DNA from: Branchiostoma floridae
Taxonomy: Eukaryota; Chordata; Leptocardii; Amphioxiformes; Branchiostomatidae
Length of the DNA stretch: 64,000 nt
Reading direction: 5' to 3'
Assembly: GCF_000003815.2 (NCBI RefSeq)
Contig: NC_049982.1
Coordinates: 20,696,985 to 20,760,984, forward strand
The notes beneath the pieces are model-generated. The model ran no database searches. It was not told the DNA's origin and was given only the letters and a program-made list of their open reading frames with translations. This document shows positions 1,847 through 61,053 of the stretch, piece by piece. The position numbers and the translations under genes were made by a program. Positions within the stretch are counted from its first letter, which is position 1; each line of letters begins with the position of its first letter.

Positions 1847-12886
<11,040 letters not shown>

Positions 12887-39331: not shown

Positions 39332-42300
39332 ATGTATGGCTTACTTTTAGAAAATATCCACGACTTCTTCAAACGGGTCTATGGCGTGGACGTTTGGAAG
39401 CAGATCCGCAACCGCGGAGGCATCAAGGCGACCAGCTTTGTACTGAACCAGTCTTACCCCGAGACTTTCCTCCTGCGTCTATCCACGGCAGCATGCGAGT
39501 ACACGGGAGAAACGCAGGACGATCTTATGTATGACCTTGGCATATCTCTTATAAAGTTCTACTCTCGAAGTGGATACGACAAAGTATTGCGAGTACTCGG
39601 CCGAAACATTGCATCTTTTATAAATGGACTGGATAACCTCCATGAATACTACCGCTACAAATACCCGAAGATCAAGCCGCCTAGCTTCTCCTGCCAAGAA
39701 GAGTCCAGTACCGGCATCACAGTGCGCTACCGGAGCAAGCGGCCGGGCTTCCTACATATGGTGAGGGGTCTTCTCAAGCAGCTCAGCAAGCAGTTCTTCG
39801 AAAAAGATGTCAAAGTCGAAGTGATGTCAGAAGAACTCAAATTGGAATTGAACAAGGGTGTGACACTTGTACATTATCGCATGCACTTCGATAACACAGC
39901 GCGCATGATGCCCACCTACACAATCAAGCCAAAAAAGAGCCTGGACGACATCTTTCCTGTAGAGAGCCATCATTTCTTCAGCTTGTTTCCCTTCCACATT
40001 GCATTTGGCAGAGAGATGGTTATATTTAAGGTATGTGAACTATTTCTAGCTTCTATACTATTTAATGGGTAGATTGGCATACTGTGAGGCTTTGCGAAGG
40101 GCTATTTGTGTATAAAATGTGTTAAGCACACTTGTTACAGTAACAATGTATATTGGCAAAGATGTAGAAAACCATGAATGTGACATGCATACCTAGATTG
40201 GCCATATATGTAGATACAACCATCATGTGCTTCTTGAAAAGTGATAAGATACAATTTGGTCCTAAGCTAAGCCCAACGCAAATATTCATAGCGCATACAA
40301 GTCTAGTCCAAAGCCACATGAATATCAGAAAACGTTGTTACAAGTTTAAAAACCCTATATCCGCGCACAAAATAAAGCGTATGTATGGATAAAGGGTTTT
40401 TAACATTGTAACCTAATGTTCACTACCGTCACAGATGAACATACATTCAAGTGTCAGAAAACCTTGCTATGCTTTTCTTCATCTTGTAGTAACGGATCCA
40501 TAGGCTACGAATCGAAATCACATCCTGTATGTACTGATTTGATTTATTGAAAAAAGTGATTACAATAAAGACTAATATTGACTTTTAACGATGCATATAG
40601 ATGTGCTCGTGATGTCCGGTAAGAATTGCAGTATTGTAAATCAACGGGCTCCTTTCTCTGCTAGGTGGGGATGGCGTTACGAGAAATCCTGCCAGAACTG
40701 GTCGGCGAGCGTGTCAATGATGTTTTCTTTGTTGTTAGGCCACAGCACATCGAATTTACGTGGGACAATGTGAGTTTTCCTTCATCTGCATTTGGGGAGT
40801 AGATTTTGTTGTATTGAGGGAGGGGGGTCACGTGAATTCTAACATCAATGGTCTGTAATACGTAACCTCGGTGAAGATGGCATTTGAATACAGATGGTCA
40901 ATTAACAATAGAATTAGTTGAGGAAAGATTCTCGTACTCGTATCTGGTTTGGCTTCAGCCAACATGTAAGCCATATTTCATTCCCCTTTGAGACAGCATG
41001 TTCTGTCGTTTTCCGATGTAATCTCACCTTTAACGAAAATTCCGTTCTTGGCAGTCATAAGATAATACTGTACCATGTTCTGGATAGGTACGTGAAGGAA
41101 TGACACACAAAGCAAGATTTTGACAGCTGTCCGTTATATTCATGATAACCGTATGGAATATATAGCTGTCCGTCCTATTCATGATATCCGTATGGAATAT
41201 TGTATACATAATGTTGTATACATATTATCTGTACATGGTATCAACGGTGATATTTTATAGTACTAATGTTTCGGCATCATGTCACGGTTCCCTTAGTCTT
41301 GCCTTTAATCGATCGATTGAACGTAAGTTGGGAGGGTGTGTGTAACGTCCTATTGGTGATCCCGCCAGGTTCTGTTACATTCCAACAACGTGTTCGAGCT
41401 CATCTCGGACAGCCCAGTGGAGCGACGAAACCTGGCACTTCCTTGCAGAGGAAGCAAAGAACAAAGTCAGTCATTTCATATTTCATGTGCTCCGCACTAC
41501 TATAGTTGTGACGTATTGTTGAAAAGCCATTGTGAATGTAAACACGATAACACGAGGACATGTTTGCGACGAAGGTTTGATGCTACCACTATTGCTAGGC
41601 GAGATTTATCACTTGTAGAAAATATTTGCCAGGAAAATTAGAAATAAACTATTTCGTTCGATGAATATCAATCAATCGTAAGGTGGCGTACTTGGTAGTA
41701 TATGTCAAGTCTTCAGACTAACTACACTAGCTCAAAAATAGTTAGATTCAGCCAAATAGGGGGAATAATTTGCCAGGGGAGTTTGTCGACCTTAGGGTTA
41801 CATTTACAAGGGGAAATGATATCTTTCCCGCAGACCAACTCCCCGGGTCAATTATTCATCGTATTAGTGCAGAATCCCATTATCCATAACCCCCTAGGAA
41901 GCCCTGCTGGACGCTAGTTTCCTTCGAGGACTTAAAGTAGTATATTGAAATATGATTCATTGGGAAGAAAGAAGAAAGAAATATAAACTCAGTGTTTCAT
42001 ATCTGTTGAAGTAAAGTCTGTTTGCTGTATTTTATGCCCTGTTAACGATTTTAAAGGATGGAAAGTGTTTGTTATGTATGCCTTTGATCCCTACATGTAG
42101 TGTTCAGTAAGAGTAGCAAGCCCAGAGGGGTGCGCGTGGAGAATGTGGACCCCACCACGGTGAAGGTGAAGTGGGAGCCTCCCAAGTCCCTGACTCAGCA
42201 GCAGCAGATCCATGGCTACCAGGTGCGCTATCATTCTCTGCTGAGTTTACACCTTCAGCACCATAACTCGTAATACACAGTGCACGGCAGATCGTTATAT

Positions 42301-45300
42301 TTGTGAGGTTGATATACACATTTATTTGCTTGCACTGTGATTTTATACCAACAAGTACTTGCTTGCAGAAATGTTTATGGGTATCTTTTAACTGGTAAAT
42401 GTTCTATCTTAACACTTTCTAATCACAGATAAAGTGTCGTCTAAAACAGAACACTGGATGTTGTGGAAATAAAATGCAGCATTATCTATGTATATGTTTA
42501 TGTATATGTACATGTATATGTATTTGGATATAGGGCGACTGATTCCGAACTCAAGTTCCTCATCGACATCCGATGGACGAACATCATACATACTCTGCGT
42601 TTATCTCTTGGCAATCGCGACCGCTATACTTATGTTTTCTTGTTTCAATTGTTTTGTGTGTTCCTCGTAACATCACAGCCTCGTAACTCGCTCAGATAAA
42701 TTTCGGCAACCTCCAAAACTGTTGAATATTTTATCACTTAAAAAACACCGCAAATATTTGAATGTCTAAGTAACCAGAATGACTCAAACCATTGGTGAGA
42801 CATTGAAAGGTCATATTCGAGATGGCATCTGGAATATCCTATTTGGGTCGGCTCGATGCTAAAAGAGAGAAACATGTGTTGACTCACACAGGTGTACTAC
42901 CAGAAGGTGACGGAGGAAGGCGAGGCTGTGGGAGAGCCCATGAGGGCGGACGTCTGGAACGCCAAAACCACGGTAGCTGTACTGCTGTTGTAGAGACTGT
43001 CTCAAAATTTTGCAGCCTCGAAGCAAGCAAGAAAACGCAAACATGCATGGAAATCATTTGGGCCCTAAACATTCTGTGTAAACAAAGCGCTTTGCTCTAA
43101 TCTGTTTCTAATTCGATGAGAAAACAGGAGTATTGCGAGCTTCTGAGACATTCTGCTACAGGTCCTTGTCTTGTACCTGTCACCACCCAGCAAGCTTGAT
43201 ATCCGAGAAAAGCATCCACCCTTCCCTCCTAAAACACACGGATTTCCATTTTGTAACAGAAGAATCTTTGTTATCATTCTTGACTCGCAACCTGGCCGAG
43301 CCAAAAGCAGCCAACAACGCTGATGACTGGGTGAGTTCGAAGAGTGTGGACAGGACAAGACTTGTGCATAAGAACTCCCCAGTTCAGAGTAAAGCTGTGA
43401 GCCTTGCACACTTGACCGGCCACTATGAAAGTTTCCCAGTGAAATGCGACACCGCAGTGAAGTATTTTGCAGTGTCCCCGTTGATATAGATATTTGGGTG
43501 TTCGGCGCAACCCTAAAACATATCTGGCGTGTCTACATAACTTTTCATAAACTGCTAAGATGAGGCCTGCTTGGTTGGTCTGTAGTCTGAATATCCGCAG
43601 TGTCAGTAGATCCAGTAGTCTACGCATGTTGGTGGTTGAATAGACATAATTGATGGAAGTAAACAAAACAAGAATGGACGTATCATCTTGTAGAGTTATG
43701 TGACGTGGTATTGCCAATACGATTTATGTCTTTAATTTGCATTGATGTAGCTCAGTGATCTTCGTTATATGTGTGTCTCACATGATGCTGATGTGAAAGC
43801 CACCGCTTTATCAATCTGGCGTCTTCATCTTAAAACACACGAAGTGCTGAATGTGTAACCCTTGGGTGTACTAGAAAGAATAATGCATAGTCTGTGACTT
43901 TTTCTCCGCATATATTCATACTGAGATTTATTATGACGAATTCTTCTATCGTTGCCTAATATCTTCCACTTGACTCTTTGTCTTTCTATTACGCTACCTC
44001 AAGAGCATAGATCAGAAGAATGCGCGTAGATTGTCCAAAGTAGTCTACAGGCAAATAACTAAATGATAAGTTCGTCATGTTTGTCCACGTTGCCAAACGC
44101 GGGTGATTAATGTTGAACTGGCCTTTGCATGATACACCTCGACATGTGACGTGGACAATTATTTGTAGCGTGACAACTAGTTACCAACGCTGTGTTGGAT
44201 ATCCAGTGAGTCTCGTAACTGTTCCTCAGGAGGTGGCGGTAGGAGGCCTAGATCCAGACGCTAGCTACGCTGTACAAGTAGTCGGCTACACCAAGACAGG
44301 AGAAGGGGAGAGGAGTGAGGCTCAGGTTGCCTGCACCACCCTGAAAGCCCCAGCCAATATCGTACCCGAGGTGACCAAGCTGCCGGCTGAAAACCGCGCT
44401 GCGGCCCATAAAGAGGACGGAGGGAGGGCTGACGAGGTCCATGACGACATCGCGCGGCCTTTCCGTTCACCAGGTACCGTCTTTTCTTCATCCTCACATC
44501 TAGCTATCTTAAAACCATGTTACCATTGGCCACATATTGACTCTACAGGACATTTCAGTCATGTTTAAACAACCTATGTGGCTTGTTCCGTTACAGCCGA
44601 CGCCCACCCCCACGAAAGGCATCCGGTAGATGCCAAGCACTTACACCCAACTGCAGCCAACAAATCTGGTAAAAGTAAATACCTCAGCCTCAAAGGGCAG
44701 ATGAGGTACGTGTCGGAGTGGAACGCGGTTCTCTTCTTAGGGACGCCAGTGTAAGTCAGCTGCACTTCTTTGGAAGTACTCCATATCCTTATATAGACGC
44801 AACAAAGTATGTCATTGTAATGAGCTAAACATATTCTGTGTTCAAGCGTATGAAACGATCAATGATGCTGTAAGTTTCAATATGCAAAGTGTAGTTTGGG
44901 TTAAGGTTTGGTTTGCTGAGTGTTTCTGCCGTCATAGGATGGGCAACCTGGAGGACTTGTTCAACTACGGACTGTACCTGACTGACCTGTGTATGCACGA
45001 CTGCACAAGAGAGATGATCATCAACGGTACCCAGCCTTCAGTAGAGCTGAAGTTAGCAGTTAATAAGGTAACTGACAGGTGCTATCAGTCACAAAAGACA
45101 AGAAAACTGCCAGAAAACCTAAATATGACCGTTTATACGACCCTCTTCAAGACAGATGACCCACTTATTCTCTTTCGTGACGTTCTGGACACGTGGCTCC
45201 AATAAAAGCTCAGTTTGAGATGGGCTCAATCAGCATACTCTCCAAGCAGAGGTTAGGCTCCGGCTGTTTTTTAAACGTTTTTTTATGTCGTTTGTATCGG

Positions 45301-47630
45301 GCTTTCTGTTTTTTTTTATCTAAATCTTGCTGTGTAAAACCTAACTGGCGGCGTACTTCAAGAAAAATGACAAAATAGAAAGCCCGATAAAAACGACTAA
45401 AAAAAAAACGTTTCAAAAACAGCCGGAGCCTAACCTCTGCTTGGAGAGTACAATCAGCATGCTTATGTCGTGTAACGTTTAATCTGCTAATCGACAAACA
45501 GTCATGGTACATAAAGCAAATGAATCATGTTAACATGCTGGCGGGATAAGTATTCAATAAGCAATTAGATTTACAGTAAGAACAACGGAATGCTGCAAAC
45601 TATTTTTAACGTTATACATCATTCATCTTGATTACATTTTTCAGCAAGCTGAAACTAACGACGAATTGGGCGAACTCGTCCTAAGGATCGACAAAGAGAA
45701 GAGAAAGGCTGACGAACTTTTGTACAGTATGATCCCAAGACCCATTGCCGAAAGGCTCAGGAATGGAGAAGCTGCTCTCAATACATGTTCGGTAAGATCT
45801 GGCATCGACTCTTTCCTTCTAGTCCGGTAGATTCGTAGAATGACGTTCAGCTTGTTTTACATACTGGTGCAAATATTAGTTGTCCTCATATCACCTCTGA
45901 ATGAAGTATTTCCCTTATTTTTCTGGCTGCAGATATTCCACGAGGTAAGCGTTCTGTTTGCGGACATCGTGGGCTTCACGGACATCTGCCGTAAGGTCAG
46001 CCCCATGGAGCTGGTGACGCTGCTCAACGAATGTCACACGCTCTTCGATGACCTTGCTCAGCAACACAATGTCTTCAAGGTGGGTCATTTGAAGAGAGAT
46101 AATGGCAAAACCAATTGAACAGATTGAAAACTCAGAGTGTAGATAGGCGTAACGCAAACAACTAATGGTAATTCCTACCTGATATGTACTTCAACCTCGT
46201 AACAAAGGTGTCATTGAATGCAAGTGTATGGAGACAATCATAACAACTTAATATCATGGCAGACTTACCTTAACATATGACGACTGGATACCGTACAGAT
46301 GAAGACATGCAATATGTTTTCTTTCCCCAGGTTGAAACAGTGGGAGACGAGTACATGGTAGAGAGTGGTGCTCCTATCCCGAACGAGAGTCACGCATTTG
46401 AAGTAGCTGACTTTGGACTGGACATGCTCAAATCTCTCAGCACAACGAAGAACCCATCAACGGGAGACCCTATCAAAGTCAGAATAGGTCAGTGAGCGAA
46501 CATAGTCAATTTCTCTATAACGTGTCACTGTTATCAAACATTTGAGAGTTGTTGTTTTACTGCCGATGCTGCCAAATGTGTACCAAAATGTTAAATTTGT
46601 TGTTGGAATATCAGCCATACAACTGTCCAACACAGGTACCAGTTACTGACATGATCTTCTAATGTTCCGTTTTTCAGGCATGAATACTGGAACTGTAGTT
46701 GCCGGTGTGGTGGGGCTAAAAGTGCCCAAGTACTGCCTGTTTGGAGATGCAGTCAATACAGCATCACGGATGGAAAGTACAGGGTTGGTGAGTATGGTAT
46801 TCAGTATTTGTGTTTTTTTATGATAATTATTAACGATCAATAGGAAAGGCTTCATCACATCTAAGCTTTACACCTGCTATTGAGATGTCGGGTACGTGTT
46901 GATATTATCATTAAGTCACAAGATGTAACGGAAGGAATATGTTCTTTGGAAGAACGATTAACACGGGGAATAAACCAATTCATTTCCTATTACAGCCCAT
47001 GCACATTCACATTTCCGAGGATATGAAGAAGTGCCTGAAAAAGGCTTACATCATAAAAGAAAGAGGAGTTGTCACCATAAAGGTAAGGATTTAATATCGA
47101 TATCCACAACTATCAGGTTAACGTCATTACATAAGTATGTATTACATCTATTCATACCCTGTGATTGATCGTGCATGTAGATTCTGCATATTTCAACAAA
47201 GACAACTTTTAATGGTCTCCTTCCGTCATGACAATGGTCAATCTTGTATGTGAAATAGATTGTAAAAGTTGCTGTTATGACCTTTGTTTCAAGATATTTC
47301 TTGACATGCCTCAACAAGGAACACTTGACAACCTATCATCATAAATTTTATTGATTTGTCTCTTTCCAGGGTAAAGGCCGCATGAAGACATACTGGCTAG
47401 CCGGGAGGAAAGACGAAGAGTCGTCCTCAGATGACTCGGATAATACCACCAGTGGCAAGAAAAGCTCCAGGTTAATGGTACCCCGAGAGGCAGGCAGTTC
47501 CAGGAAGTTTGAAAGTAAAAAGGGCAGGGGCGGGGCATATTCGTCTGGTCAGCACTCGCCCGACAATAGTGACGAAGAGTGCCCAAGTCTAGACGGGGAA
47601 AAACAAAGTAAAGTTTGTGTCATACTTTAA
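39332..47630 (+). CDS. H-NOX/FN3 guanylate cyclase, paralogue 1
   Basis: Exons: 39332-40030, 40665-40769, 41369-41465, 42101-42222, 42892-42972, 44230-44473, 44597-44750, 44938-45067, 45645-45791, 45933-46079, 46331-46487, 46678-46787, 46996-47082, 47370-47630; 846 aa. Residues 1-185 are an H-NOX haem domain like insect Gyc88E (start MYGLLLEN), with proximal ligand His104 and Y133-x-S-x-R137. HNOBA/PAS follows from about 215 and is interrupted by an FN3 domain at about 304-409, resuming at [10 protein letters not shown] signalling helix (about 536-588, [15 protein letters not shown]) leads to the cyclase domain (594-760), with metal Asp604 and Asp648, guanine-selecting Glu644 and Cys714, and transition-state Asn721 and Arg725 all present. 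An acidic Ser-rich tail ends in CVIL, a CaaX box. Predicted role: haem-gas-controlled GTP to cGMP conversion at a membrane, as homodimer or with the downstream paralogue. The start is fixed by the conserved MYG. Confidence 0.92.
41124..41200 (+). repeat. Two-copy ~40-bp direct repeat
   Basis: AGCTGTCCGT(T/C).TATTCATGAT followed by A(A/T)CCGTATGGAATAT occurs twice in tandem in intron 2 of paralogue 1. Confidence 0.75.
42101..44473 (+). other. FN3 cassette of paralogue 1 (exons 4-6)
   Basis: Three exons (42101-42222, 42892-42972, 44230-44473) encode a full FN3 fold: [20 protein letters not shown] (strands A-B with core Trp), IHGYQVYYQKV (strand C with core Tyr), then [20 protein letters not shown] (E-F region with the LxPxxxY signature) and [13 protein letters not shown] (strand G). 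The intron before exon 4 and the one after exon 6 are both phase 1. After strand G comes about 40 residues of charged linker. The cassette splits the PAS-like HNOBA domain just before the strand that contains LKGQM. Confidence 0.9.
42488..42530 (+). repeat. (TATATG)-type microsatellite
   Basis: Imperfect ATGTATATG repeats in intron 4 of paralogue 1. They produce spurious Met/Tyr/Val-rich ORFs. Confidence 0.7.
45237..45450. mobile_element. 214-bp MITE with ~72-bp TIRs and 10-bp TSD
   Basis: The left arm starts ACTCTCCAAGCAGAGGTTAG and the right arm ends in its inverse (CCTCTGCTTGGAGAGTA); the arms stay complementary for about 72 bp with few mismatches, into GGGCTTTCT/AGAAAGCCC. A perfect direct repeat CAATCAGCAT flanks the element at 45227-45236 and 45451-45460. 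Long TIRs plus a 9-10-bp duplication are typical of Mutator-like (MULE) non-autonomous elements. It has no coding capacity and lies in intron 8 of paralogue 1. Confidence 0.8.
47370..47630 (+). other. Last exon of paralogue 1, acidic tail and CVIL CaaX box
   Basis: The exon begins with the end of the cyclase fold ([12 protein letters not shown]), continues with an acidic Ser/Asp stretch ([11 protein letters not shown]) and a basic patch ([11 protein letters not shown]), and ends KVCVIL then TAA. CVIL fits the CaaX consensus, and a Leu in the last position usually directs geranylgeranylation. Confidence 0.85.
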
Positions 47631-50600
47631 TCGACAAGAAAATGTGAACCGTGTTGCCAAAATCCAACAGTCATCTACTTTCACTGTATTATGGCGATTT
47701 TCTCTAGGCGGCCCAGCAGGTATTGCCATCGGCTAAACACATTCTCCAGTGGTATAGATCATAGTACGAATTGATGGTAATAGCAACAAACAGGAATGTC
47801 ATTGCCATTGACACTGGTAATTGCCGTTTACTTCCTACTGATTTGCTGGAGATATACATTGTTAGAGCAATGCTCATTGATCAAGTGAACGTTGACATAC
47901 TATGTATATCATTGTAGTGTATTCTATAAGACGTATAGGCGACAGATCACCACTTTTTACCTTATCCGTCATTCGCAGTTACTATTGTCTAAGCAAGGAA
48001 GAGGCATTTCTTTTCAGCTCAAGCGTTGCTGCATGGGCTTTGTTATTTGGTAGGTCAATAATTCTAATTGTTATCTAGATCCATGTTATACATTCCGCAA
48101 AATCATAGCCCTAAATTACTGGTAACAGAGGAGGATAACCTTAGGCATATTTGTTGCAAAACTGACCGCAATCAACTGGTGACAAATAAAATCAACAGGA
48201 AATGAAACATAGATCCATGCAAGGATGTTGCAACCTGACCCGATCGCCACTACTACATTTGGGTGCTAGCTCCTTCTAGTGGACGACGCTGTTTTAGCCA
48301 GCTGGTAATAGTATTACCGTTACTATATTCGTAATGTTCGTTTTCTTTTTGACGTGATGTGATGTGGCCATGTAATACTCAGAATAGAGTGGGTAGGTTA
48401 CACAAATGCTAGCTTGCGCCACGGTCGACAGTGAACTAATGCACATATACGTTACCTGGGAAGAGTATGGATTAGTAGACCTCATGACGCTTAATTGTAG
48501 CTTGAATTGCATAATGGCCAGGACGCAATGCACAAATAACGGATTATCGACTGGAAAAAATTGTAGTTACGGAATCAAAGAGATGACACAGACAGATTTG
48601 TATTCTCGATGGAATGTCACCTAAACGTTTCTGACAACACTTGCTGCTTTTAAAGATATATGTTCATTTTAGATTACGAAATCTTAAGTCCTGTGACAAG
48701 TTAGTCTTTACTTAAACATTCTAATGAAAGGGCTTGTATACTTACTGTACTGCCAAATGATACACCAACACCCCCAAATCAGATTTTGTTTGGTCATTGG
48801 CATAAATAAACTCTTTTCATATAGTCCTTATCTAACAAACTTAAACGTAAATTGAAATACTATATGTGAAATGTCACCACCATCGTGTAAAACTCCGTCC
48901 CATTCTGTACCACTGCCAAATAACCATACATATTCATCGGCTTACGTATTGCGTATCTAAATTTACGTTCTTGCCCGTTTTGCTGGTTTCAATGTGTTTC
49001 GTTCAAACCGCACTGTTAGGTCCTGCAGGGAGACGGTGTTCTGGTAGGTTGAACATGCAAATCTGGTTTCCAGGTGGCTAGAATTGTTTTACTGGAATAG
49101 TACCCAGTGGTGTAACCATAGATCTGCATAGACTGGTGACGACCCAAGATTTTGCCTCAGATTACATTAATTTTTTTTTATGCTATAAAGATTTGGCAAA
49201 CCTGATAGCTCTTATCTTTAAGTTGTAACATTTTACGTCGTCAAAGCATTTTTCAATCATCAGGGTCTCTAGGATAACTTCGTTGGAGTAGCGAACTATT
49301 GCAGAATGACTATGATGTTGACAGAGAGACTCGTGCTATTTTGAGATCAAGGTACTGAGAAATGGGTGGTTTTCCGGCAGACTCGCAAGGTGGTCGTACA
49401 CGACCAAATCGGACGAGTGGCACAAGCTGGGAATCGTTTGAATAGACCTTACTAACAGCAGACGAGTCAAATGAATTCAGCAGAAGCTGTTAGTAAAGGC
49501 TGCCATCGCAGCGTGCAACGTAGTAGCTATTAGTAAAGTCTATTTCTAAAGGGAACATTTTGTGGTGGTACATTTAGCAGTCCTTTAGCATATTTCCTAC
49601 TACTTCCCATAAAGTCCCCTGATGCCCCTCTAGTTCTCCTTAAGTCCTGGTGACATCCTTCTGTTCTGTCTGTTGTATCAGGTAGGGAAAAGATCTCATC
49701 CGCATCTCCGTGTGATTTTAGACCTTCTCCAGATCTAATGGCCGTTGTTTGTTTGCAGAGGCAGTGACTCAGGCCTTATGTAACTTGTGGCATATTCGCT
49801 GCATTTACAGAACTTGGGTTTACTAGCTATGATGTCATGAATGATGTCATAGAAAGTCAGGCGTTTCATTTATTCAACATGCGTGATGAATCAAAATGAA
49901 TCGAGCTATTCGTGCGCTGAGGTCAGTTATCGGATTTTGAATTTGGGGCTTAGAAGAATTTGGTACCTGTGTTGCCAAGGCTTGTCGTCATGATCACGAA
50001 CTTGTCTTTATTTCTACGTAGTTTTAGTCAATCCTGACCGAAAATTGCTATGCAGCACGCAACGTAGGTTCGTTCCTTGTCTCTCCCTGTGACGTCATAT
50101 TTAAAGAAGACCTAGATACAAATAATCAAAAAGCATGACTCACATCACTTCTTAATTCCTGTTCTGCGGAAGGGCTTTTTTCCATTAATTTTTACTGTGT
50201 GAATAAAGTGCGCAAAAGTGTATTCATGCTACACACTACACACTGGCAGGTTTGAGGGGCCTTGAGCCACGAAACAAAATCATGAAAGGGCAAAACTAAA
50301 AACTTTCACCATGAAATCTTTCGAAGGATGGCAGAAGACCGTCTACAAAAATATTGAGATCCGATCAACTCTGAGCCATTTTGTGATGTGCATATAACAT
50401 CTTATTAAGTGTACATTGTAAGACATGGTTCATGGTTCAAAAATGTATATACTGCGGAAAACGACGCGTTCCTAAGGGCTGTTTGAAGGAAAGGTATGAT
50501 GGGGAGTGATGCGGAAACGTCATGTTTTGAACTGTATAATGAAAGAAAACACATGGAATACTGCTACGCGCATGTATTATCATTCCCCTTCATTATACAT

Positions 50601-53600
50601 TCAAACTTCCTTTTTGCTCATCGCCCATGATTATCTTTTCTTGGACAGCACTGATATCTTCAGTTCTTAGGTACGTTGAACAATGGATTATTACTTAGGA
50701 TTAATGTGCAATCAGACATGATGTAATACATGTAATGCTGTTGGTGAACAAAATGAATTCGACTAAGTCTCCGAGGCACTAACATAAAGGAACATCATCT
50801 TTGATTACCACCCAAGTTTGTAGTTATGCCTGTGATGTTTAAGGGTAGGTCACCTAGGTGTTGGTTTTGTATTAGAAGTATGTGCAGGAATGCATTCTCT
50901 GTGTTCAGCTAGTATGTGGACATGTACATCTTCAGAAAACGTGGTAGTCATTACTTCGATGCTATGTATAAGTACCAACTCATGATGTTTGTGTCGTTGT
51001 ATCCTCCAATAAACTTTGACGTGAAAAATACACGTGTTGCGAGTTTTATTTCAAGGATACTGGTGAGGTGTAGTAATAACTACGTATGCAATACATAGGC
51101 TGCATTAGAAGTAATTGTGATATAAAACATTGAAAATTCTTGACTGTCAGATTGATGAATCACTTCTAGACAGAATGGTATACTAGTATCTCTGAGATTG
51201 TTCAATACCACTCAAGAAAAAAATATATAGCTACGGGTTTTGATTTAGACGTTGAGCGAAAAATCGAGAGCAAGAACTTCTTGATTCAACTTCAACTACA
51301 GTCAAACCTGCCCAAGACTACCACCCTCAAGGGGACCGGGCAAAAGCGGTCGAGTATCGACTCACAACATGCTCGATGCATAGTTTAAATGGTTTCCGTT
51401 GTGTTAAATGGCAAATAACAAGCACAAGCACGTGCATCCGCCGCCATCTTTATTTTGAACATAACATCGTAATGGTAGTCAAAATCCGACGAAAACTGGC
51501 CGAATTGGGCACAAAATTACGCTAGTTATCATTAAAAATAGATGACACCTCAAGATTTGAAAACGACACGGTCGTTTTCGGGATTTGGTCCCGATTTTTG
51601 GCCATATGGTCGTTGTGAAGAGGTCACTTAATGCTTACGTCAATGGGAAAAATTTTCGGGACAGCGAAAAAGCGGTCGTAATGGCCAGGTCGTTGTAAAG
51701 AAGAGGTGGTCGCTTGGGCAGGTTTGACTGTATATCCAGATAATCACCACACGTAGACATGTACGAACACATACGTGTAGCATGTGGAGCTAGCTGCACA
51801 CAGACAGACGTTAATTTGCTTGTGATGACCTATATAGATCTATATGTTTATTTCCAAAATACTCACTCAATAAGAACAAAATATTAAGGGTATCTGTGAC
51901 GCCTATTTTTGTAAAACGCATCTGTCCCAAAAAAGAGTACCATTGATCCAAGTAATTTATTTGTTTATCAAACTTTACCATCGCAATGGAGGGGGAGCCA
52001 AAACAGGTGATTGCTCACCTCTGCGTGTTGCCTCATTTTGCTCATTTATTACATATTTGGAGACATCTTGTTGGCATCTAGTACAATATTACTTATGTCT
52101 TCGGTTCAACGTCTGCATTCGGTCTCTCACACAGTAAAGTATACCAGGGCTTGAGTTTGAGAAAGCTTTGGAATAACAATGACTCAGTGATCTTTCCAAC
52201 TGAGTTTTAGAGATGGTCGGTAGTTTGTAGAAAAACAGAGGCTTTGGCGTTATACTATTGGTGCTAAGCTACATAGAAATAGTATCTACAGTGATATTCT
52301 TAGGTACATCAATGCCGGTCCATAGTGGAAGTCTTGAACCGTAGAATTCGATCTGTACGTCGCACAGTTATCATATTTACAATCATCATCGCCATTGTAG
52401 ACATTATCAGTCAGCATTCCGGCCCATCATTCAAAACTATTGTCACCATATAGTCATTGCTATTCGTCTTCGTTAACTATAAATACAGGGATGTCGTCTG
52501 TATGAGGTGCTATTCGGCTTCTTAAACACATACTTTTATCAGGTCAACCACAGCTTCCAACTAATGACCCTGTCGCACATTGCCAGCCAAGCAACGTCCT
52601 TGGATGGGAGCGTTCGGTTCGGGAGAAAAGTTGGAATGTGTGGCAGGGGCAATCAAGTTATTGGACTACCGTACAGAACACAGTGTATCATATCGTCATG
52701 TTATAATTCTTATCGGTTTCAATAAGACGAACTATTTCGTATAACGGTAGATGGCTATTCTACTAAACCGAAATTAACGGTTAATACTTATCAATTCAAC
52801 AGATGAATTTATTTTAACCAATAAAAAGGCTCATGAGATCTTTTGTACATGGCAGGAAATTCAAATAGCCTGAAGGATCCGGAAGTACAGCAATGTGGTT
52901 GGTTAGTGATCAACTTGATAGAGAGATGTTTATATCATGCGACAATCAGATGCGTGAAAAAAGTTATTTGATGTCTGATATTCGATGTCTGATAAAGGTA
53001 GTTTCTGCTTAACAAATAGCACTTCAACGCCGAGATGTCGTTGTTTGCCATTTTAGTTTTTTTTCCGAACTTGTTTGATTTCAATACGTAGCCGCACGCG
53101 TGCTCACCCCTTTAAAAGTGAATTGGGAACCCCAAAAACAGTAATTTTGGAAATATAGACGGTCAAATATGGGCCAGTGTAATGTGTAGGATTGCATATT
53201 GAAGGACAAAAATATTCAACAATATCGAGATGTCGTCATCACATGAATGGAGCGAACCAGTTCTGGTGTGCGAAAAAAACTTTGTTGACGTAAAAGCCTC
53301 TAAATTCTGCTCGAAATTACACCGCATCTGGATGGCAGATGTCACTTTTCCCAGTACCAATCAACCTTGCTGTCATCGCAGAGATGTATCTGATTGGATT
53401 CTCCCGAAGGGATGAAATTAGCATTCCACGTGCTGGGATTCCGCCGGTACACATCGTGCTGACCGTTTCGGGGGCCGTGGAATTCGTTTGCGCACGCGTC
53501 AGTATGCCAAACCTCGTCTAACAGACCCGAAAAAGGCATTCCTGATTCCAGGATACCACGTGGGTGACTAACAGCGGTAGACAACGGACGAGGCTGCTGT

Positions 53601-53787
53601 TGTTTACAGATCATCATGACGTCCGTTCAACCTTACAGACCACGTTATCCGCACCAGCCTGTGCGTTCCCAGCGACCCTAGTGATACCGTTCCATTAGAG
53701 TGGACGGCGGAGCAGAGAGGGAGTTGAGAGAGAGAAGACACGGGGTTGCGTTCTCGGTCGGTCAGTATCGTATACGAAGTATACGCC
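47631..53787. other. Spacer between the tandem cyclase genes
   Basis: It begins with the 3' flank of paralogue 1; an AATAAA at 48185-48190 is a candidate poly(A) signal. The rest has only short unrecognised ORFs, a 432-bp foldback element at 51299-51730, and the 5' flank of paralogue 2. I see no remnant of a further cyclase exon. Confidence 0.6.
51299..51730. mobile_element. 432-bp MITE-like element, TA flanks
   Basis: The ends are inverted copies: CAGTCAAACCTGCCCAAG at the left and CTTGGGCAGGTTTGACTG at the right, each bordered by TA (51297-51298 and 51731-51732), compatible with a TA target-site duplication. Inside, phrases with GGTCG and AAAGCGGTCG recur in both orientations. No ORF of transposase type is present, so it is non-autonomous. 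TA duplication suggests a Tc1/mariner-like mechanism, but the superfamily is not certain. Confidence 0.7.
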
Positions 53788-56700
53788 ATGTATGGACTTC
53801 TGCTTGAAAACATCCACGACTTCTTCAAGAGAGTGTATGGTGTGGACATATGGAGGAACATCAGAAAAAGGGCAGGTATCAGGGCTACCAGCTTCGTTCT
53901 CAACCATTCCTATCCAGAAACTTTCCTTCTGCGAATATCGACAGCAGCATGCGAATATACAGGAGAAACGCAGGGAGATCTCATGTACGACCTTGGCGTA
54001 TCTCTTCTGAACTTTTACATGCGAAGCGGGTACGAAAAGGTTCTCAAGGTATTAGGCCGTAACATTGCTTCCTTTATGAATGGCCTGGACAATGTTCATG
54101 AATACTACCGCTACAAATACCCGAAGATCAAGCCGCCCAGCTTCTCCTGCCAAGAAGAGTCCAGTACCGGCATCACAGTGCGCTACCGGAGCAAGCGGCC
54201 GGGCTTCCTACATATGGTGAGGGGTCTTCTCAAGCAGCTCAGCAAGCAGTTCTTCGAAAAAGACGTAAAAGTTGAAGTACTGTCTGAAGAGGTTAAGTTG
54301 GAAGAAAATGCAGGGGTTACTCTCGTCCACTTCAGAGTTCACTACGACAACACTTCTACAATATTGCCGGCGTTCAAACCACCCAAAAACTTCAACGAGG
54401 TCTATCCCGTGAAAAGCAAAACCTTCTTCAAGCTCTTTCCATTTCACATCGTATTCGGTCGGGACATGGTCATCTTCAAAGTGGGACTAGCACTGCAAGA
54501 GGTCCTTCCTGAGCTGCTAGGGGAGCGAGTAAATGACGTGTTCTTCGTCGTCCGACCACAACACATCGAGTTCACCTGGGATAACGTAAGTTCACAACTT
54601 GACTTTTATTTACCATTTTCGCTTGCTGCAATAGTTACAGACCTGATAGCTACATGAATATGATAAATCTAGTGTATATCCAAACGCCAAAGATTAATCC
54701 GGGACAGAAATGTATTCATGTGTGTTTCTGTCGGGGATTTAATGCTCTTCCTCATCTTTTGTCCTCCCCAAGATTTTGCTGCATTCCAACAATATATTCG
54801 AACTGATATCTGACAGCCCGGTAGAACGCAGGAATGTCGCATTGCCAAGCAAGGAAAAAGGTTGGTCCCCTCTGTGCTAACAGGTTATTGGTGTGATAGA
54901 CACGCGTTGTATGATGTACACTTTGCACTGAATAGATTCTGTAGGGACTTCATAGGACCTGCAGCAACACGGTAGGGTGTAGAATGCACTGTACTGAAAT
55001 CTCCGTGTAGAAGAATGATGGGTGTAACAATCTAAACAATATCCTATCCGGGGGCTTCGGCTGTAGTAAATTGCGCTGCTGTGTTTCCATACACAGTTCT
55101 AACCCATGGCCCCAACCATGTCGTAATGCCGGCGGTTTCCATTTTTCTTAGTTTTTAGTAAGAGCAACAAACCTCGTGGAGTGAAAATCGAAAACATCGA
55201 TTCAACGACTGTGAAGGTGAAATGGAACCCGCCCAAGTCTCTTACACAACAGCAGCAGATTCATGGTTATCAGGTATCGTAAATTTATATTCACAACTGT
55301 TGCGTTCAGGTGTGCATAAGTCTTTGGGCCTATCTGTTGGCTTAAAAGTTTCTTTACACTAATGTCTGATTTGACAACTGTCTCAAATGTTGTTTTATGT
55401 AGAGAGAGTAGTTGTTGGATAAGCTTTCTGCTAGTAAGAGCTTTCGACTGCTATGCAATCCAACTCTGACAACCACTCAACGATTTAAGAACGAAGAATT
55501 TGTTTATGTTTTAAGTTTTTGTTTTGGATTTCACAACATAGTTTCATATTGTGCTTTATATTCCAAAAATAAAATCAATGGTGACAAAAATCCAATTTTG
55601 TTCGCTGAGCGGCTGATGTGTGGATAGGATGTCGTGGTTATACCGTGCTGATGTCCGTAACTTTTATCTGCCTCAGGTCTACTACCAGAAAGTGACGCCC
55701 ACTGGCGAGGCCGTGGGTATACCGATGCGTGTAGATGTGTGGAATACCAAAACCACGGTACGGTTTTTATATGATACTAGTATATGTCCGTTTGTCCTGA
55801 CTATGAGCAGGTTATCATGATGCTTGCAGAATTGCTTTTCCGTGTTAGAGTTCACTTATCCACACAGTAATTATGAGACTACCATCAGCATTGCGAGGGC
55901 AGCTGCATTTCTTGAATACAATTACATAGAAGGATACATTCATGGACCTTCTAATTGATAAAGATGCAGCCAGCTACGTTATACATAAAGGAAGATGTGG
56001 TAATTCTCAGTTAAGACAGCAACTAGCCATTGTCTGCCTCCAGAAATCTTTTAATGTTCATCAAGGTTGTTAACGTCCAGCTCCTCATAAAAGCGCTGAA
56101 GCATGTTACAGACTCGTCTGCATTACTCTTGTGTGCACCACAGTAGACAATGCTGTCTCTAAACCCTCCAGGAAATCTCTGTAAGTAGTTTGGAGCCAGG
56201 TGCATCGTATGCTGTTCAAGTTGTCGGCTATACCAAGCTCGGAGAAGGGGAGCGCAGCGAAGCCCAAGTAGCAACAACACTCAAGGCACCCGAGATCGTG
56301 CCTGTTCCAGTTGACGCACCAGAACTGAAAGATGGATCAACGGATCCTCAGCTTCAAGCTTATCAGTTGACAAGTGGTTTGTGGAGATCTCAAACGTTTT
56401 AAAGTTTTAATTCGTGCGTATCAAGTTGTCTTGTTTGTCAGATCCCACGCCTCCCAATCAAATTTTAGATCTGACCATGTACCGGTGGCATGTTGATCAT
56501 GATGTCCTTTCTGGCTTCAGGTGACCAAGAGGACGACTCTGAGGATCTCAACAAACTACCATCTTCTCATCAAACTTCAAACCGAAACAAAAAAGCCGGT
56601 AAGGAGTTCTTTTCATTTCACGCATAGGTGACAATATGTGCTTTCTTATCAAAATTAGTACGATGACGTTTGCTATCTTACAATTGGTATCATTGATACA

Positions 56701-59700
56701 TACGATTTCAGCAATGCAAAAACTTGTCATGTAATCAACAGTGTAAAGTATAAACGAGAACACGAGTTTAGTCAATGAAACTTTAAGATACATGTTTATG
56801 AAGTATAAGGTAAAAGGATTGTAAAAATCCTAAAACTAATGTGGGTTGGTGATAGTGAAAAGTTTCCGTTCATTACGGTAAGGTCGAATTTTTGTCCATT
56901 CTGTAGAAAATAACTTGGACTATCGAGGTTTTATCATTGCTTTCAGGTTTCTCGACGGTCCTAGATTTACTAAAGTGGAGTGGAAATTCAAGTTAGTATG
57001 ATGGAATTACATGAGATTACATTCTATAACGTAAATGTGACGTGCGTTAACAACGTTGTCTGCGCTATGCTAAAGTAGCAAGGGAGTCTTGGAAAGCACT
57101 ATGGATAGTAAATAAGCTCGTGCAGAAACGGCGAGTAATGTGTTTGTCTTTTGCTTTTTTTGCAACTGATTCTCAAAAAGTTCAAACTGCGCCAGGCATT
57201 ACCAATATTATCAGTTGATGAGAATGACACACCTTTAATAGTAACAGTTACGTTGAACCTATGTAAGGAGTCAGGAAGACTGGGGGGGGTGGGGTGGTCA
57301 TGGATTGGAACCTCTGAACATTTAAGATTATAATTGGAAATTACCCACCACTGTAAAAAACACTTTCATTGCTCTTCTATGGATGAGTTAACATTGGAAT
57401 TAGGACCCTGTATACTGCCAAATAGTTGTGGACACTCATTCTGCCTTACCGAATCCAGACTATCACCAAAGACTCTCTTGCTACTGTGCGTGGGGGCCAT
57501 TGACCTGTAACGCTTCCATTCATGTGGCTGTCTACGTAGCACGGTGTCGTCTTATGCTACTAATGTATGCAATATGTATGTACAAGATACGGTCAATCGC
57601 ATCCATATGATCCAATTTTGTACATGCTATGCACCTGCGTGTTGCACACTTGAGTTTGTTCATTTTCTGACCGTATCTGCAATTTTTCATCCTCTATCTC
57701 TATATCTATTATATTTCTATATTTCCTTACAATGCCCCAATGATAGACTCAGCTTTGGGATGGTCAGGTAAGACAAGCACTCACAGATTCTTACGGTGCT
57801 TTGCTGCTAGCAGCATTCATACACTAACAATACTAGTACAAAAAGAAGATGCATTCAAGTGATGTACATATTCTTTATCAAGTCGCTTCTACACAGGTGA
57901 ACATTCAAATCATACAGTGACACTATTACCATAGCTTCTGAAGTTTCATCAAATGAATTTTATTGACGTCTTTTGCTGGCAATCTTGATCGCTTTTGTAT
58001 TTGGAATGTTTCCCCTTGGTCAAGAAATGAAAGGGTTTGTTCGTAACAGTTAGATGTTGATACCGAAAACACGATGTCTCTTTTTACAGACGATGCTATG
58101 ATGGGGCTGGTGGACAAAACAGACGATGTGGAGCCATCCAAACCGACCTCCAAGTATTTAGGCCTAAAAGGGCAGATGAAGTACATGCCTGAGTGGGACG
58201 CTGTGCTCTTTGTGGGCACACCAGTGTAAGATCATTCAGTGTTCCTTAAATTTCAGTGTACACAAGCTGCAACAGTGCAGTCGATGTTCATTAGAGCAAG
58301 ACATTTTCCTTCTCACGTGCATGTGTTGTCACCCCCCAAAAGGATGAAACTATTTTCCAAACTTTTCTTTACATGTTGACTTGTGTTCACCTAGTATGGA
58401 GAACCTGGAAGACCTGTTCAACTACGGACTGTACCTGACTGACTTGTGTATGCACGACTGCACAAGAGAAATGGTCATCAATGGTACCCAGCCATCTGTG
58501 GAGTTAAAGTTAGCTGTAAACAAGGTCTGTCTGACTATCATACAAAGCCAACGATTGATTTATATCTTACGCCGTTTGTTTGTTTGTCGGCAGTTATCTG
58601 AATGGTTCAGAGCGAAGTGGTATGACAGAATACTTAGAGCATTGAAAGTATGGTTTGGCTCAGGTACACTCTGTTGTCGTTAAAGGCCGGGGAGTGAATG
58701 CGCGCAAGTTGAACATATTATTCCTGACTCATGGCCCATTCATTGATGTCAGATAGTCAATGATAACAACAATACTCAAGCCATTTGCATGAGGCAGTTG
58801 TTATTTCACATAGCGTTGTAATGTAGGAGGCCATATAGAAGTGTAGTGTAGGACTTGGGCTTGGCATATAGTTTTCTGTTTCTATTCTATCGTATATATT
58901 ACCTTTGCTGATAAGAACAAAAATAGATGAATATATGCCTGATGGTGCTGGGTGTTGTGGTTGTCTAGGAAGCCGAGACAAATGACGAGCTGACGGAACT
59001 GGTCAGTAAAATTGAAAAAGAGAAGAAAAAGGCAGACGAGTTGCTGTACAGCATGATTCCCAAGGCTGTTGCGGACAGACTGAGGAACGGCGAACCGGCG
59101 GTCAATGATGTAAGTCGTTCTTTTGTATGTTTAGTTATATCAATGGGGCCGCTAATCATTTCGGTATACCGAGCGCATTCTTGCTTTTGCGGTAGATTTA
59201 TATCTGTTGTCTCACTGGAAGTGTGTTTATATTTCTTTTCACTAGGAATAAGTGCCATGTTTTGAAAGAATATAGATCCCTTTTACCTAATTACATGCTT
59301 ATCATATGTCTAATGTCGACTTTCAAACGTATTAATTTGTAACCTTATCTTTATAAAGAGCAAAGCAGCACATAGGTAGATAAGTTGTTATACAGAACTC
59401 TCTGTTTTCCCTTGTTGCTGTGCGTCACTTGTTTATGTGTACGTGCTGCTTGATATGCCAAAAATGTTTGGTACTGTTTCACAGATCTTCCAAGAGGTGA
59501 GCGTGTTGTTCTCCAACATTGTTGGCTTCACGGACATCTGCAGCCGGGTCAAACCTATGGAGCTGGTAACTCTTCTCAACGATGCCTACACCATCTTCGA
59601 CAATCTGACTGAACAGTATAATGTCTTCAAGGTATTTTCATATGAATCTAGTATCTCGCTATAAATTTTACATAAACTTTGCTTTTGAATTTGATATATT

Positions 59701-61053
59701 GGGCACAAGCAACATAGCATTGTGTTACAATTTAGCAAGTGTGTCTAGCTGTTGATGTATTACTTAATTTGAAGACGGCAAATTATAACTGTGACACCAG
59801 AAATGTATACATTCCATAGGTGGAAACTATCGGAGACGAATACATGATTGAGTCTGGAGCGCCCATCCCCACCCAAGCGCACGCCTTTGACGTTGCTGAC
59901 ATGGCACTGGCTATGCTCAACGCTATTGGGCAGCTGAGTGACCCATGCAACGGCGAAACCATCAAAATCAGGATAGGTATGGACAGCAGAGGCCTTTACA
60001 ACAGCTTTACCAAATGTTGACGCTGTGATTTGAAAGAAAATTTACGTAGCACAGCATTATTGTAAGTTGCTAAGTTCTGAAAATTTGTGTTGTCCTAGGA
60101 ATGAACTCTGGGCCTGTTGTTGCCGGTGTTGTGGGTCTGCGAGTGCCGCGGTACTGTCTGTTCGGTGACACGGTCAACACAGCGTCCAGAATGGAGAGTA
60201 CAGGAGCGGTCAGTATCTACTGTATATCCCACCATAATGACTTTACTTCATACTTATTACAGGCACTAAACTCCTCCCTAATAAACTTCGTGGGGCCGTC
60301 ATGTTATTGGAACCATGTTGTTCCTTTTTTGCTTTCTTTATCTTAGCTTTCCTAGCTTTGTACTTTCTATCTTGAAGCCCTGCTTTCACCAGTTCTTCCA
60401 AAATATAACGCAAAACATGCTAGGAATATGTCCATAATTCTTCACCATAACGACACTGGTAACTTACAATATTTGTACATCACTCAACAGCCAATGACTA
60501 TCCAGATAACCGGAGCAGCCAGGAGATACCTAAAGACATCCTACATTATTGAAGAGAGGGGACTGATTTCTGTTAAGGTATGTAACAGTCTAGCCATGTT
60601 ATTCTCTTACTTATTCCATGCATTGCATTGCTAGCTTTGCAATGAAATTTTAACAAAAGGCACAGAAAGAGAGTAGAGAAAGAGAGAGAGACAGCACATA
60701 GTATTCTATAAGGCCCTTACCAAATGTTGTTCCGCTCTTACGTGCAGGGAAAAGGGAAAATGAAGACCTATTGGCTGAAGATACGGCGAGAGAATGAGGA
60801 TGAGGACGCCGAGTTCGACTCAGACTCTTCCGACTCCACCATCATCCCAGCTCCTCAGGGTTTGGCGGCTCAGGAGCCTAAGACCAAAGACAAATGTAAG
60901 GATGCTTCAGAAGATAAGAAAAACAGGAAAGAAGGAAAGAGGGCCATGGTTGACAACGACATGTTCCTGGATGGAAGTGGCGAAGACGTTCTTCAACCTG
61001 AGACGAAACATGGTAGTCGTACCAAGTTGAGTCAGGTCTGTAGTCTGATGTGA
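53788..61053 (+). CDS. H-NOX/FN3 guanylate cyclase, paralogue 2
   Basis: Exons: 53788-54585, 54773-54860, 55152-55273, 55677-55757, 56172-56376, 56521-56598, 58090-58225, 58395-58524, 58969-59109, 59485-59631, 59820-59976, 60099-60208, 60491-60577, 60748-61053; 861 aa with consistent phases. Same architecture as paralogue 1: H-NOX with His104 and the YxSxR triad, HNOBA split by FN3, signalling helix ([18 protein letters not shown]), cyclase domain at 594-760, acidic tail, and terminal CSLM CaaX box. Differences: exons 1 and 2 of paralogue 1 are one uninterrupted exon here; an extra linker exon (56521-56598) follows FN3; and residue 604, the first metal-binding Asp (FADIVGF in paralogue 1), is Asn (FSNIVGF). 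Glu644, Asp648, Cys714, Asn721 and Arg725 are kept. With one metal ligand changed, it may act like the mammalian beta1 subunit and need a partner that supplies the Asp. The donors after exons 2 and 5 (GTTGGT, GTTTGT) are weak but forced by phase. Confidence 0.92.
55152..56376 (+). other. FN3 cassette of paralogue 2 (exons 3-5)
   Basis: Exons 55152-55273, 55677-55757 and 56172-56376 encode [51 protein letters not shown] and [12 protein letters not shown]. The first two exons have exactly the same lengths as in paralogue 1 (122 and 81 nt). Both outer introns are phase 1. The FN3 is about as conserved between paralogues as the catalytic domain, while the linker after it is not, which points to a functional fold. 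Confidence 0.9.
60748..61053 (+). other. Last exon of paralogue 2, acidic tail and CSLM CaaX box
   Basis: It starts [16 protein letters not shown], then a strongly acidic Asp/Glu/Ser segment ([13 protein letters not shown]) and a Lys-rich segment, and ends SQVCSLM then TGA. CSLM fits CaaX; Met in the last position usually directs farnesylation. The exon is complete, ending 17 bp before the assembly gap. Confidence 0.85.

What the first reader, a model, noticed from the sequence alone, without database searches (positions are those of the whole stretch)
39332..61053. Fibronectin III domain inserted inside the PAS domain of 'soluble' guanylate cyclases, in two tandem genes
Seen: both genes encode H-NOX, half of HNOBA, a full FN3 signature (core Trp, IHGYQVYY, LxPxxxYAVQV, TTLKAP), then the rest of HNOBA (LKGQM) and the cyclase. 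Known: H-NOX cyclases are cytosolic and normally consist of H-NOX, HNOBA, coiled coil and cyclase only; FN3 is usually extracellular or a cytoskeletal/scaffold module. I know of no H-NOX cyclase with FN3. Inference: the FN3 gives a protein-binding or spacing arm in the signal path between haem and catalytic domains.
Basis: partly seen in the sequence, partly recalled or inferred. Interest (0 to 1): 0.92.

Follow-up and report, generated by a model that had tools for sequence, protein, structure and literature searches.

The report
FN3 domain spliced into gas-sensing cyclases
Two neighbouring genes encode enzymes of a gas-sensing type that make the messenger cGMP, and each carries, inside its signal-relaying domain, a module that looks borrowed from a cell-surface adhesion receptor, so a known kind of enzyme gained an unexpected arm at the joint between sensor and catalyst.

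Summary
Two tandem + strand genes (39332-47630, 53788-61053) give open 846- and 835-residue proteins: H-NOX, a PAS/HNOBA domain interrupted by one fibronectin III (FN3) domain, coiled coil, cyclase. All four Pfam domains pass their cut-offs. The FN3 replaces the loop matching human GUCY1B1 281-301, beside known haem-to-PAS contacts. It is 83% identical between copies although silent sites are saturated. The genome (513 Mb, unnamed, probably a lancelet) has 11 H-NOX loci; my FN3 profiles found no FN3 at the other nine. The FN3 resembles one of the same genome's LAR-type receptor phosphatase: 43% identity over 98 residues without gaps, the same internal intron position and phase, phase-1 introns on both sides. 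An FN3-free paralogue has a phase 1-1 loop exon matching the tail behind gene 2's FN3. Best reading: exon shuffling of a receptor module into a cytosolic gas sensor of the atypical cyclase group. Both proteins keep haem-binding residues and end in CAAX boxes; gene 2 lost a catalytic Asp. Docking is inferred. Structure, transcripts and spread in animals could not be tested.

The parts
39332..40030 (+). Gene 1 exon 1: H-NOX (haem ligand His104, YRSKR) and start of PAS
   Evidence: model; Pfam HNOB 2-164, 156 bits; residues aligned to human GUCY1B1
40665..40769 (+). Gene 1 exon 2: PAS N-half (includes Arg258 equivalent)
41369..41465 (+). Gene 1 exon 3: PAS segment matching human residues up to 280, then conserved SDSPVERRN segment; ends in phase 1
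42101..42222 (+). Gene 1 exon 4: FN3 first part (core Trp, ends IHGYQ)
42892..42972 (+). Gene 1 exon 5: FN3 middle (VYYQKV...NAKTT)
44230..44473 (+). Gene 1 exon 6: FN3 last part plus start of return linker; ends in phase 1
   Evidence: FN3 taken as residues 305-409
44597..44750 (+). Gene 1 exon 7: linker, then PAS strand with LKGQM
44938..45067 (+). Gene 1 exon 8: PAS C-half and PAS-coil linker
45645..45791 (+). Gene 1 exon 9: coiled-coil region (by alignment)
45933..47082 (+). Gene 1 exons 10-13 (45933-46079, 46331-46487, 46678-46787, 46996-47082): cyclase; first metal Asp604 (codon at 45963)
47370..47630 (+). Gene 1 exon 14: end of cyclase, tail ending CVIL (CAAX)
53788..54585 (+). Gene 2 exon 1: H-NOX and PAS N-half
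   Evidence: Pfam HNOB 2-164, 152 bits
54773..54860 (+). Gene 2 exon 2: PAS segment before the FN3; ends in phase 1
55152..55273 (+). Gene 2 exon 3: FN3 first part
55677..55757 (+). Gene 2 exon 4: FN3 middle
56172..56376 (+). Gene 2 exon 5: FN3 last part and tail with DPQLQAYQL; ends in phase 1
58090..58225 (+). Gene 2 exon 6: linker, then PAS strand with LKGQM
58395..58524 (+). Gene 2 exon 7: PAS C-half
58969..59109 (+). Gene 2 exon 8: coiled-coil region (by alignment)
59485..60577 (+). Gene 2 exons 9-12 (59485-59631, 59820-59976, 60099-60208, 60491-60577): cyclase; first metal Asp replaced by Asn578 (codon AAC at 59515)
60748..61053 (+). Gene 2 exon 13: end of cyclase, tail ending CSLM (CAAX)

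Best explanation
These are two tandem, haem-type cytosolic guanylyl cyclases of the atypical (Gyc88E-like) group. In their common ancestor an FN3 module of a LAR-type receptor tyrosine phosphatase was carried by phase-1 introns into the intron before the PAS loop exon. The FN3 now projects from the PAS loop between the segment that touches the H-NOX domain and the strand carrying LKGQM. A short conserved segment holds it on one side and a long variable linker leads back on the other, so the PAS fold can still close. Inferred mechanism: the FN3 is an intracellular docking arm. A bound partner, or the arm itself, biases the H-NOX/PAS movement that straightens the coiled coils and opens the cyclase, while C-terminal prenyl groups hold the dimer at a membrane near that partner. 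Gene 1 keeps the catalytic residues checked and could work as a homodimer. Gene 2, without its first metal Asp, should need gene 1 as partner, giving one active site but two haems. Shown: architecture, constraint on the FN3, kinship to the LAR FN3, intron match, residue losses, no FN3 found at paralogues. Inferred: direction and timing of the shuffling, docking, coupling, prenylation, dimer make-up.
For: Domain order in both spliced proteins. FN3 constrained: identity 0.83, pN/pS 0.17, lower than the cyclase domain (0.27) and the linker behind it (0.64, identity 0.28). Human residues 281-301 are replaced by 173 residues in protein 2. Neighbouring positions: moth beta PAS 270-275 contacts H-NOX 82-126 (PMC6839917, passages); human Asp106 contacts Arg258 when inactive and Arg305/Lys307 when active (PMC8196705, passages). 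Kept here: haem His, Asp102, Arg258, Lys307, Asp374, YxSxR. Donor: C15:16.367 Mb FN3 is the best match outside the window, 98 residues ungapped at 43%, same phase-0 intron position, phase 1 on both sides, two sets of phosphatase exons downstream. Paralogue C's 150-nt phase 1-1 loop exon matches gene 2's tail. Group: an unrooted tree split with ultrafast bootstrap 100 puts the pair with A, B, C, E. Gyc88E works alone and 89Da/Db enhance it (PMC11344882, passages). CVIL is called a geranylgeranylation motif in a plant reporter study (PMC3886798, abstract start).
Against: No RNA evidence, no structure model, no partner. Some donor sites are weak (GTGCGC, GTAGCT, GTTGGT). Gene 1's tail does not match paralogue C's loop. 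The comparison that first showed the loop motif also gave a non-collinear match of similar strength (E 0.002 against 0.003); ranks the collinear one first of 45 ORFs. Arg305 is Ser/Gly and Asp106 is Glu here, so human contacts do not transfer fully. Asp-to-Asn need not abolish activity. FN3 termini lie at opposite ends (recalled), unusual for an inserted domain. The gene has an extra intron (GYQ|VYY) that the LAR FN3 lacks. LAR splice sites were read by eye. The tree uses partial paralogue rows projected on protein 2 and has no insect sequence.
Confidence: 0.6

Rival explanations
1. The FN3 is a tolerated passenger: it folds on its own, points away into the cytosol from a loop that was already long, and does nothing beyond adding bulk.
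For: Paralogue C has a long loop without FN3, so the site accepts inserts; the return linker is poorly conserved.
Against: FN3 protein sequence kept at 0.83 identity with saturated silent sites in two copies; folding constraint alone could explain part of this.
Confidence: 0.25
2. The FN3 is an optional cassette: alternative splicing makes cyclases with and without the arm, so the FN3 is a switchable module.
For: The FN3 exons together are flanked by phase-1 introns and measure 447 and 408 nt, both multiples of 3, so skipping keeps the frame.
Against: Multiples of 3 follow from the phase 1-1 origin and need no splicing choice; skipping would also delete part of the linker, in gene 2 with its loop motif; no transcript data.
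Confidence: 0.2
3. The architecture is old and common in some animals (for example across lancelets or other deuterostomes) and simply has not been written about.
For: The copies are anciently diverged (silent sites saturated), so the fusion is not recent; automated annotation may already list it.
Against: No FN3 found at the nine other H-NOX loci of this genome; none of the text searches bearing on it showed such a protein, though several listed papers were not opened.
Confidence: 0.3
4. Annotation artefact: the FN3 exons belong to another gene nested in cyclase introns.
For: No transcripts were available.
Against: Same strand, order and phases in both copies; in gene 2 one exon holds FN3 and a tail that matches a cyclase paralogue's loop.
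Confidence: 0.03

Closest known systems
Human soluble guanylate cyclase GUCY1B1 (PDB 6jt0 chain B) and GUCY1A1
   Same: H-NOX, HNOBA/PAS, coiled coil, cyclase; haem His105, YxSxR, Asp102, Arg258, Lys307, Glu473 and Cys541 matched in GUCY1B1
   Different: FN3 replaces the 281-301 loop; Ile145 is Met, Arg305 is Ser/Gly; CAAX tail; gene 1 has an Asp where beta1 has Gly
Drosophila atypical cyclases Gyc88E, Gyc89Da, Gyc89Db
   Same: One subunit active alone, partners that enhance it (PMC11344882, passages); the related paralogues A, B and E of this genome carry the distal Tyr linked to O2 binding (PMC1435932 section 9)
   Different: No FN3 is mentioned in the passages read; the window pair has Met where A, B and E have Tyr; Drosophila sequences were not compared here
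LAR-type receptor tyrosine phosphatase FN3 (PTPRF 6x39, PTPRD 6x3a; this genome's C15 gene)
   Same: Best FN3 match in the PDB and in the genome, with shared internal intron and flanking phases
   Different: There the FN3 is one of a series in a membrane receptor (extracellular side recalled); here it is single and inside a cytosolic enzyme domain
Intracellular FN3 proteins such as titin and twitchin
   Same: Class 1-1 FN3 modules used inside the cell (PMC8001218, passages)
   Different: Those are modular chains (recalled); here the module interrupts the fold of another domain

Membership tests
H-NOX (soluble-type) guanylyl cyclase | H-NOX domain with proximal His and YxSxR | tested here: met
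   HNOB 156/152 bits; His104, YRSKR in both
H-NOX (soluble-type) guanylyl cyclase | HNOBA/PAS domain | tested here: met
   One match over profile 2-216 of 216 in each protein, interrupted by the FN3
H-NOX (soluble-type) guanylyl cyclase | Class III cyclase with catalytic residues | tested here: met
   Gene 1: Asp604, Asp648, Glu644, Cys714, Asn721, Arg725. Gene 2: Asp622, Glu618, Cys688, Asn695, Arg699, but Asn578 for the first Asp, so met for gene 1 and only in part for gene 2
H-NOX (soluble-type) guanylyl cyclase | No membrane-spanning segment | tested here: met
   Highest 19-residue Kyte-Doolittle mean 1.42 and 1.36; a simple test only
H-NOX (soluble-type) guanylyl cyclase | Haem binding and gas-stimulated cGMP synthesis | not testable with these tools
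   Needs protein
Atypical (Gyc88E-like, O2-type) cyclase group | Groups with loci having the O2-type pocket | tested here: met
   Unrooted tree of 12 rows: split with support 100 between pair, A, B, C, E and human beta1, F, G, H, I, J; no insect sequence included
Atypical (Gyc88E-like, O2-type) cyclase group | Tyr at the human Ile145 position | tested here: not met
   Met143 in both proteins; Tyr in A, B and E; Leu in C
FN3 domain | Pfam fn3 over its cut-off | tested here: met
   55.0 and 52.2 bits, cut-off 25
LAR-type FN3 lineage | Best match and shared intron anatomy | tested here: met
   one further intron not shared
Prenylated (CAAX) protein | C-terminal Cys-a-a-X | tested here: met
   CVIL and CSLM at the ends of the models; in CSLM the second residue is Ser, not aliphatic; modification itself not testable

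The most novel reading that the evidence does not exclude
A coincidence detector made by exon shuffling: an atypical cyclase whose O2-stabilising Tyr became Met (a possible change of gas, or a His/Met haem) acquired an adhesion-receptor FN3 at the haem-to-PAS joint and a membrane anchor, so that cGMP is made only when the gas signal and contact with a membrane or cytoskeletal partner occur together.
Probability: 0.2. Interest if true: 0.88.

Novelty: new variant of a known kind. Interest (0 to 1): 0.62.

Why it matters
How gas binding is passed from H-NOX through the PAS domain to the cyclase is still unclear; a review read in passages says the PAS role in signalling 'remains ambiguous' (PMC8196705). 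A natural enzyme with a whole domain inserted next to known contact residues, with related loci in the same genome where no FN3 was found as controls, makes that question directly testable. It is also a case of a class 1-1 receptor module apparently entering a cytosolic enzyme, with a traceable likely donor and a paralogue that seems to keep the pre-insertion exon; exon shuffling is said to have contributed less to intracellular than to extracellular proteins (PMC8001218, passages).

Tried and rejected
Nested-gene artefact: rejected mainly because both copies share order, strand and phases, and in gene 2 one exon carries FN3 and a tail matching a cyclase paralogue's loop. Beta2 (GUCY1B2) assignment: first suspected from the CAAX tail (a recalled feature of beta2), dropped when the tree put the pair with A, B, C and E; no beta2 sequence was available for comparison. 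O2-sensor reading: not kept because the Tyr is Met. A non-collinear match of paralogue C to gene 2's FN3 exon (C 6908-7024) was set aside: that ORF scores 38 against 61 for the collinear loop exon.

Searches that led nowhere: viral contigs (44 pattern matches, none confirmed) and genome contigs of prokaryotes (112, none confirmed); these are not collections of animal genomes and say nothing about animals. Literature: ten searches. Bearing on FN3 with cyclases: 9 (2 papers, not opened), 23 (0 papers), 31 (236 papers with at least 5 of 6 terms; the 20 listed have 0 'fibronectin type III'), 42 (9 papers, not opened), 77 (17 papers; the 15 listed have 0 'guanylate cyclase'). PMC7400543 and PMC1435932 searched for 'fibronectin': 0 occurrences each. 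PMC3795502 is not held. Papers were seen as passages, except section 9 of PMC1435932 (read whole) and PMC3886798 (abstract start only).

Not done: a curated Pfam fn3 scan of the genome (requests 76, 79, 80 unanswered), so absence at paralogues rests on my own profiles. Structure prediction was not used: its stated rule admits only proteins read letter for letter from the DNA, and the spliced proteins are not, so nothing was sent.
Full report
What is there. Comparing the two halves of the region with each other and reading splice sites gave two gene models: gene 1, 14 exons, 846 residues, and gene 2, 13 exons, 835 residues. They begin and end exactly at the coordinates in the finding. No tblastn match of either protein at E 0.01 lies elsewhere in the window. 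Pfam on the spliced proteins gives HNOB, HNOBA, fn3 and Guanylate_cyc over their cut-offs in both, with fn3 inside one continuous HNOBA match.

Where the FN3 sits. In the phmmer alignment to human GUCY1B1 (6jt0 chain B) protein 2 aligns 1-279 to 1-280 and 453-759 to 302-618; human 281-301 is thus replaced by 173 residues: a short conserved segment, the FN3 and a linker. The linker is 65 residues in protein 1 and 48 in protein 2 and 28% identical over 43 aligned codons, while the FN3 is 83% identical over 103. From passages of published work: in moth sGC, beta PAS 270-275 touches H-NOX 82-126 (PMC6839917); in human sGC, Asp106 on the haem-bearing helix contacts Arg258 in the inactive and Arg305/Lys307 in the active state (PMC8196705). 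So the insertion lies within about ten residues of both contact groups in sequence. In both proteins the haem His, Asp102, Arg258, Lys307, Asp374 and YxSxR are kept, Asp106 is Glu, and Arg305 is Ser (protein 1) or Gly (protein 2). Of five PAS dimer residues, Phe213, Phe217 and Leu320 are identical in both, Ile208 is Val in both, and Leu322 is Leu in protein 1 and Val in protein 2.

Selection. Counts by region (plain pN/pS recomputed): FN3 0.17 (pS 0.82, pN 0.14), PAS N-half 0.07, PAS C-half 0.13, H-NOX 0.15, coiled coil 0.16, cyclase 0.27, linker behind the FN3 0.64, C-terminal tail 0.41. Silent differences are near or beyond saturation in most regions (pS up to 1.03, a sign that the simple method fails there), and H-NOX holds a converted tract, so the ratios are rough. 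The FN3 has been constrained about as strongly as the H-NOX and coiled coil since an old duplication.

Who else has it. The window's genome (513,431,437 bases, 431 contigs, unnamed by the tool; lancelet is my inference from size and content) has 35 HNOBA matches and H-NOX matches at 11 loci including this pair. Nine other loci plus one HNOBA-tail locus without an H-NOX match (D) were fetched and scanned on the coding strand, ORFs of 18 or more residues. A profile built from FN3s of other genes, without the window FN3, found 4 of the 6 window FN3 exons at E below 1e-5, missed the two small middle exons (one at E 4.7, one not listed), and found nothing in the other loci better than E 0.32; the profile of the window FN3 itself found nothing there better than E 3.1. 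In loci F and H the loop is in one exon with no FN3. A diverged or finely split FN3 elsewhere could be missed, and the curated Pfam scan of the genome did not complete.

Origin. Of 30 FN3 matches listed at E 0.001, 6 are the window exons and 24 lie outside; the best outside match is C15:16367274-16367459, the only one of the 24 that stops at query residue 65, the others running to 94 or beyond. That gene has FN3 exons and, about 13-20 kb downstream on the same strand, two sets of tyrosine phosphatase exons, and its FN3 matches PTPRD and PTPRF best in the PDB: a LAR-type receptor phosphatase. Joined, the LAR FN3 aligns with the window FN3 over 98 residues without a gap at 43% identity. Its intron falls after residue 65, which aligns with residue 64 of the window FN3, where the window gene is also split, in phase 0 in both; both are entered through a phase-1 intron and left through one (LAR sites read by eye). 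The window gene has one more intron inside the FN3. Paralogue C, without FN3, has a 150-nt phase 1-1 loop exon that matches the tail behind gene 2's FN3 (EVPNDPQLMAYQL against [12 protein letters not shown]): local score 61, best of 45 ORFs in that gap, 0 of 1000 shuffles as high. Gene 1's tail shows no such match (528 of 1000 shuffles as high). The simplest history: FN3 exons entered the phase-1 intron before the loop exon, their last exon became fused to it, and gene 1's tail later diverged. [quoted passage not shown]

Group and chemistry. An unrooted tree of 12 partial sequences separates the pair, C, A, B and E from human beta1, F, G, H, I and J with ultrafast bootstrap 100 (LG+G4, rows projected on protein 2, no insect sequence). 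A, B and E have Tyr at the position of human Ile145; the pair has Met, C has Leu and J has Met. A Tyr in this pocket is linked to O2 binding, its absence to NO binding (PMC1435932, section 9). So the pair groups with O2-type loci but lacks their mark; the ligand is open. Protein 1 has both metal Asp residues and the purine-site residues; protein 2 has Asn578 for the first Asp, where human beta1 has Gly and paralogue E has Tyr. By analogy with Gyc88E and its partners (PMC11344882, passages) I expect protein 1 to work alone or with protein 2, and protein 2 not alone. Both models end in CAAX boxes, CVIL and CSLM; by the rule quoted in PMC5650666 (passages) a final Leu points to geranylgeranylation and a final Met to farnesylation. 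No transmembrane stretch was seen.

How it most likely works. Shown: a haem-type sensor and a cyclase with an extra, constrained, receptor-like domain at the joint between them. Inferred: the arm docks on a partner and tunes the H-NOX/PAS movement, with the prenyl anchor placing the dimer. A purely passive arm, or an optional cassette, is not excluded; the cassette idea is favoured only by divisibility by 3, which follows from the 1-1 anatomy anyway.

Verdict. Real, well supported as anatomy and history, unproven as function; a new variant of a known enzyme family rather than a new kind. Interest 0.62: specialists would be surprised, and the natural with/without comparison is useful, but spread in animals and function are untested.

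Noticed in passing
39683-39807 and 54139-54263: A 125-base stretch of the H-NOX exon, including the YxSxR segment, is identical in the two genes, while third-position identity in most other 15-codon windows is 13-73%: a recent local gene conversion of the haem pocket. A second short stretch (gene 1 codons 511-525) is 98% identical.
   Followed up: partly
40031-40664: Gene 1 has an intron (IFK|VGM) that gene 2 lacks, one intron gained or lost since the duplication.
   Followed up: no
L009/L010 (C4:7.63 Mb, paralogue A): Two successive versions of a catalytic exon, one of which lacks the purine-site Cys (RYTVFGKDV instead of RWCLFGDTV): possible mutually exclusive exons.
   Followed up: no
L026/L027 (C12:18.5 Mb, paralogue J): Several tandem near-copies of the PAS exon (QMIWMPSIQCMIYMCSP-like) within about 1 kb, some with stops.
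   Followed up: no
L017-L020 (C7:4.2 Mb, paralogue E): An H-NOX cyclase with Tyr for the first metal Asp (FSYLVGF) and the O2-type Tyr.
   Followed up: no
L030-L032 (C8:14259001-14285000): A long run of single-exon FN3 repeats, probably a large FN3-array gene.
   Followed up: no
16769-17578: ORF with a sub-threshold reverse transcriptase match (RVT_1, E 2.1e-6, 28.0 bits against a cut-off of 29.6): probably a transposable-element remnant.
   Followed up: no
21219-25715 and 32046-34337, +: Long open frames (1499 and 764 aa) without a Pfam match at E 0.01; a neighbouring ORF 31298-31564 has only a weak Asp_Glu_race_2 match (E 0.11, below cut-off).
   Followed up: partly
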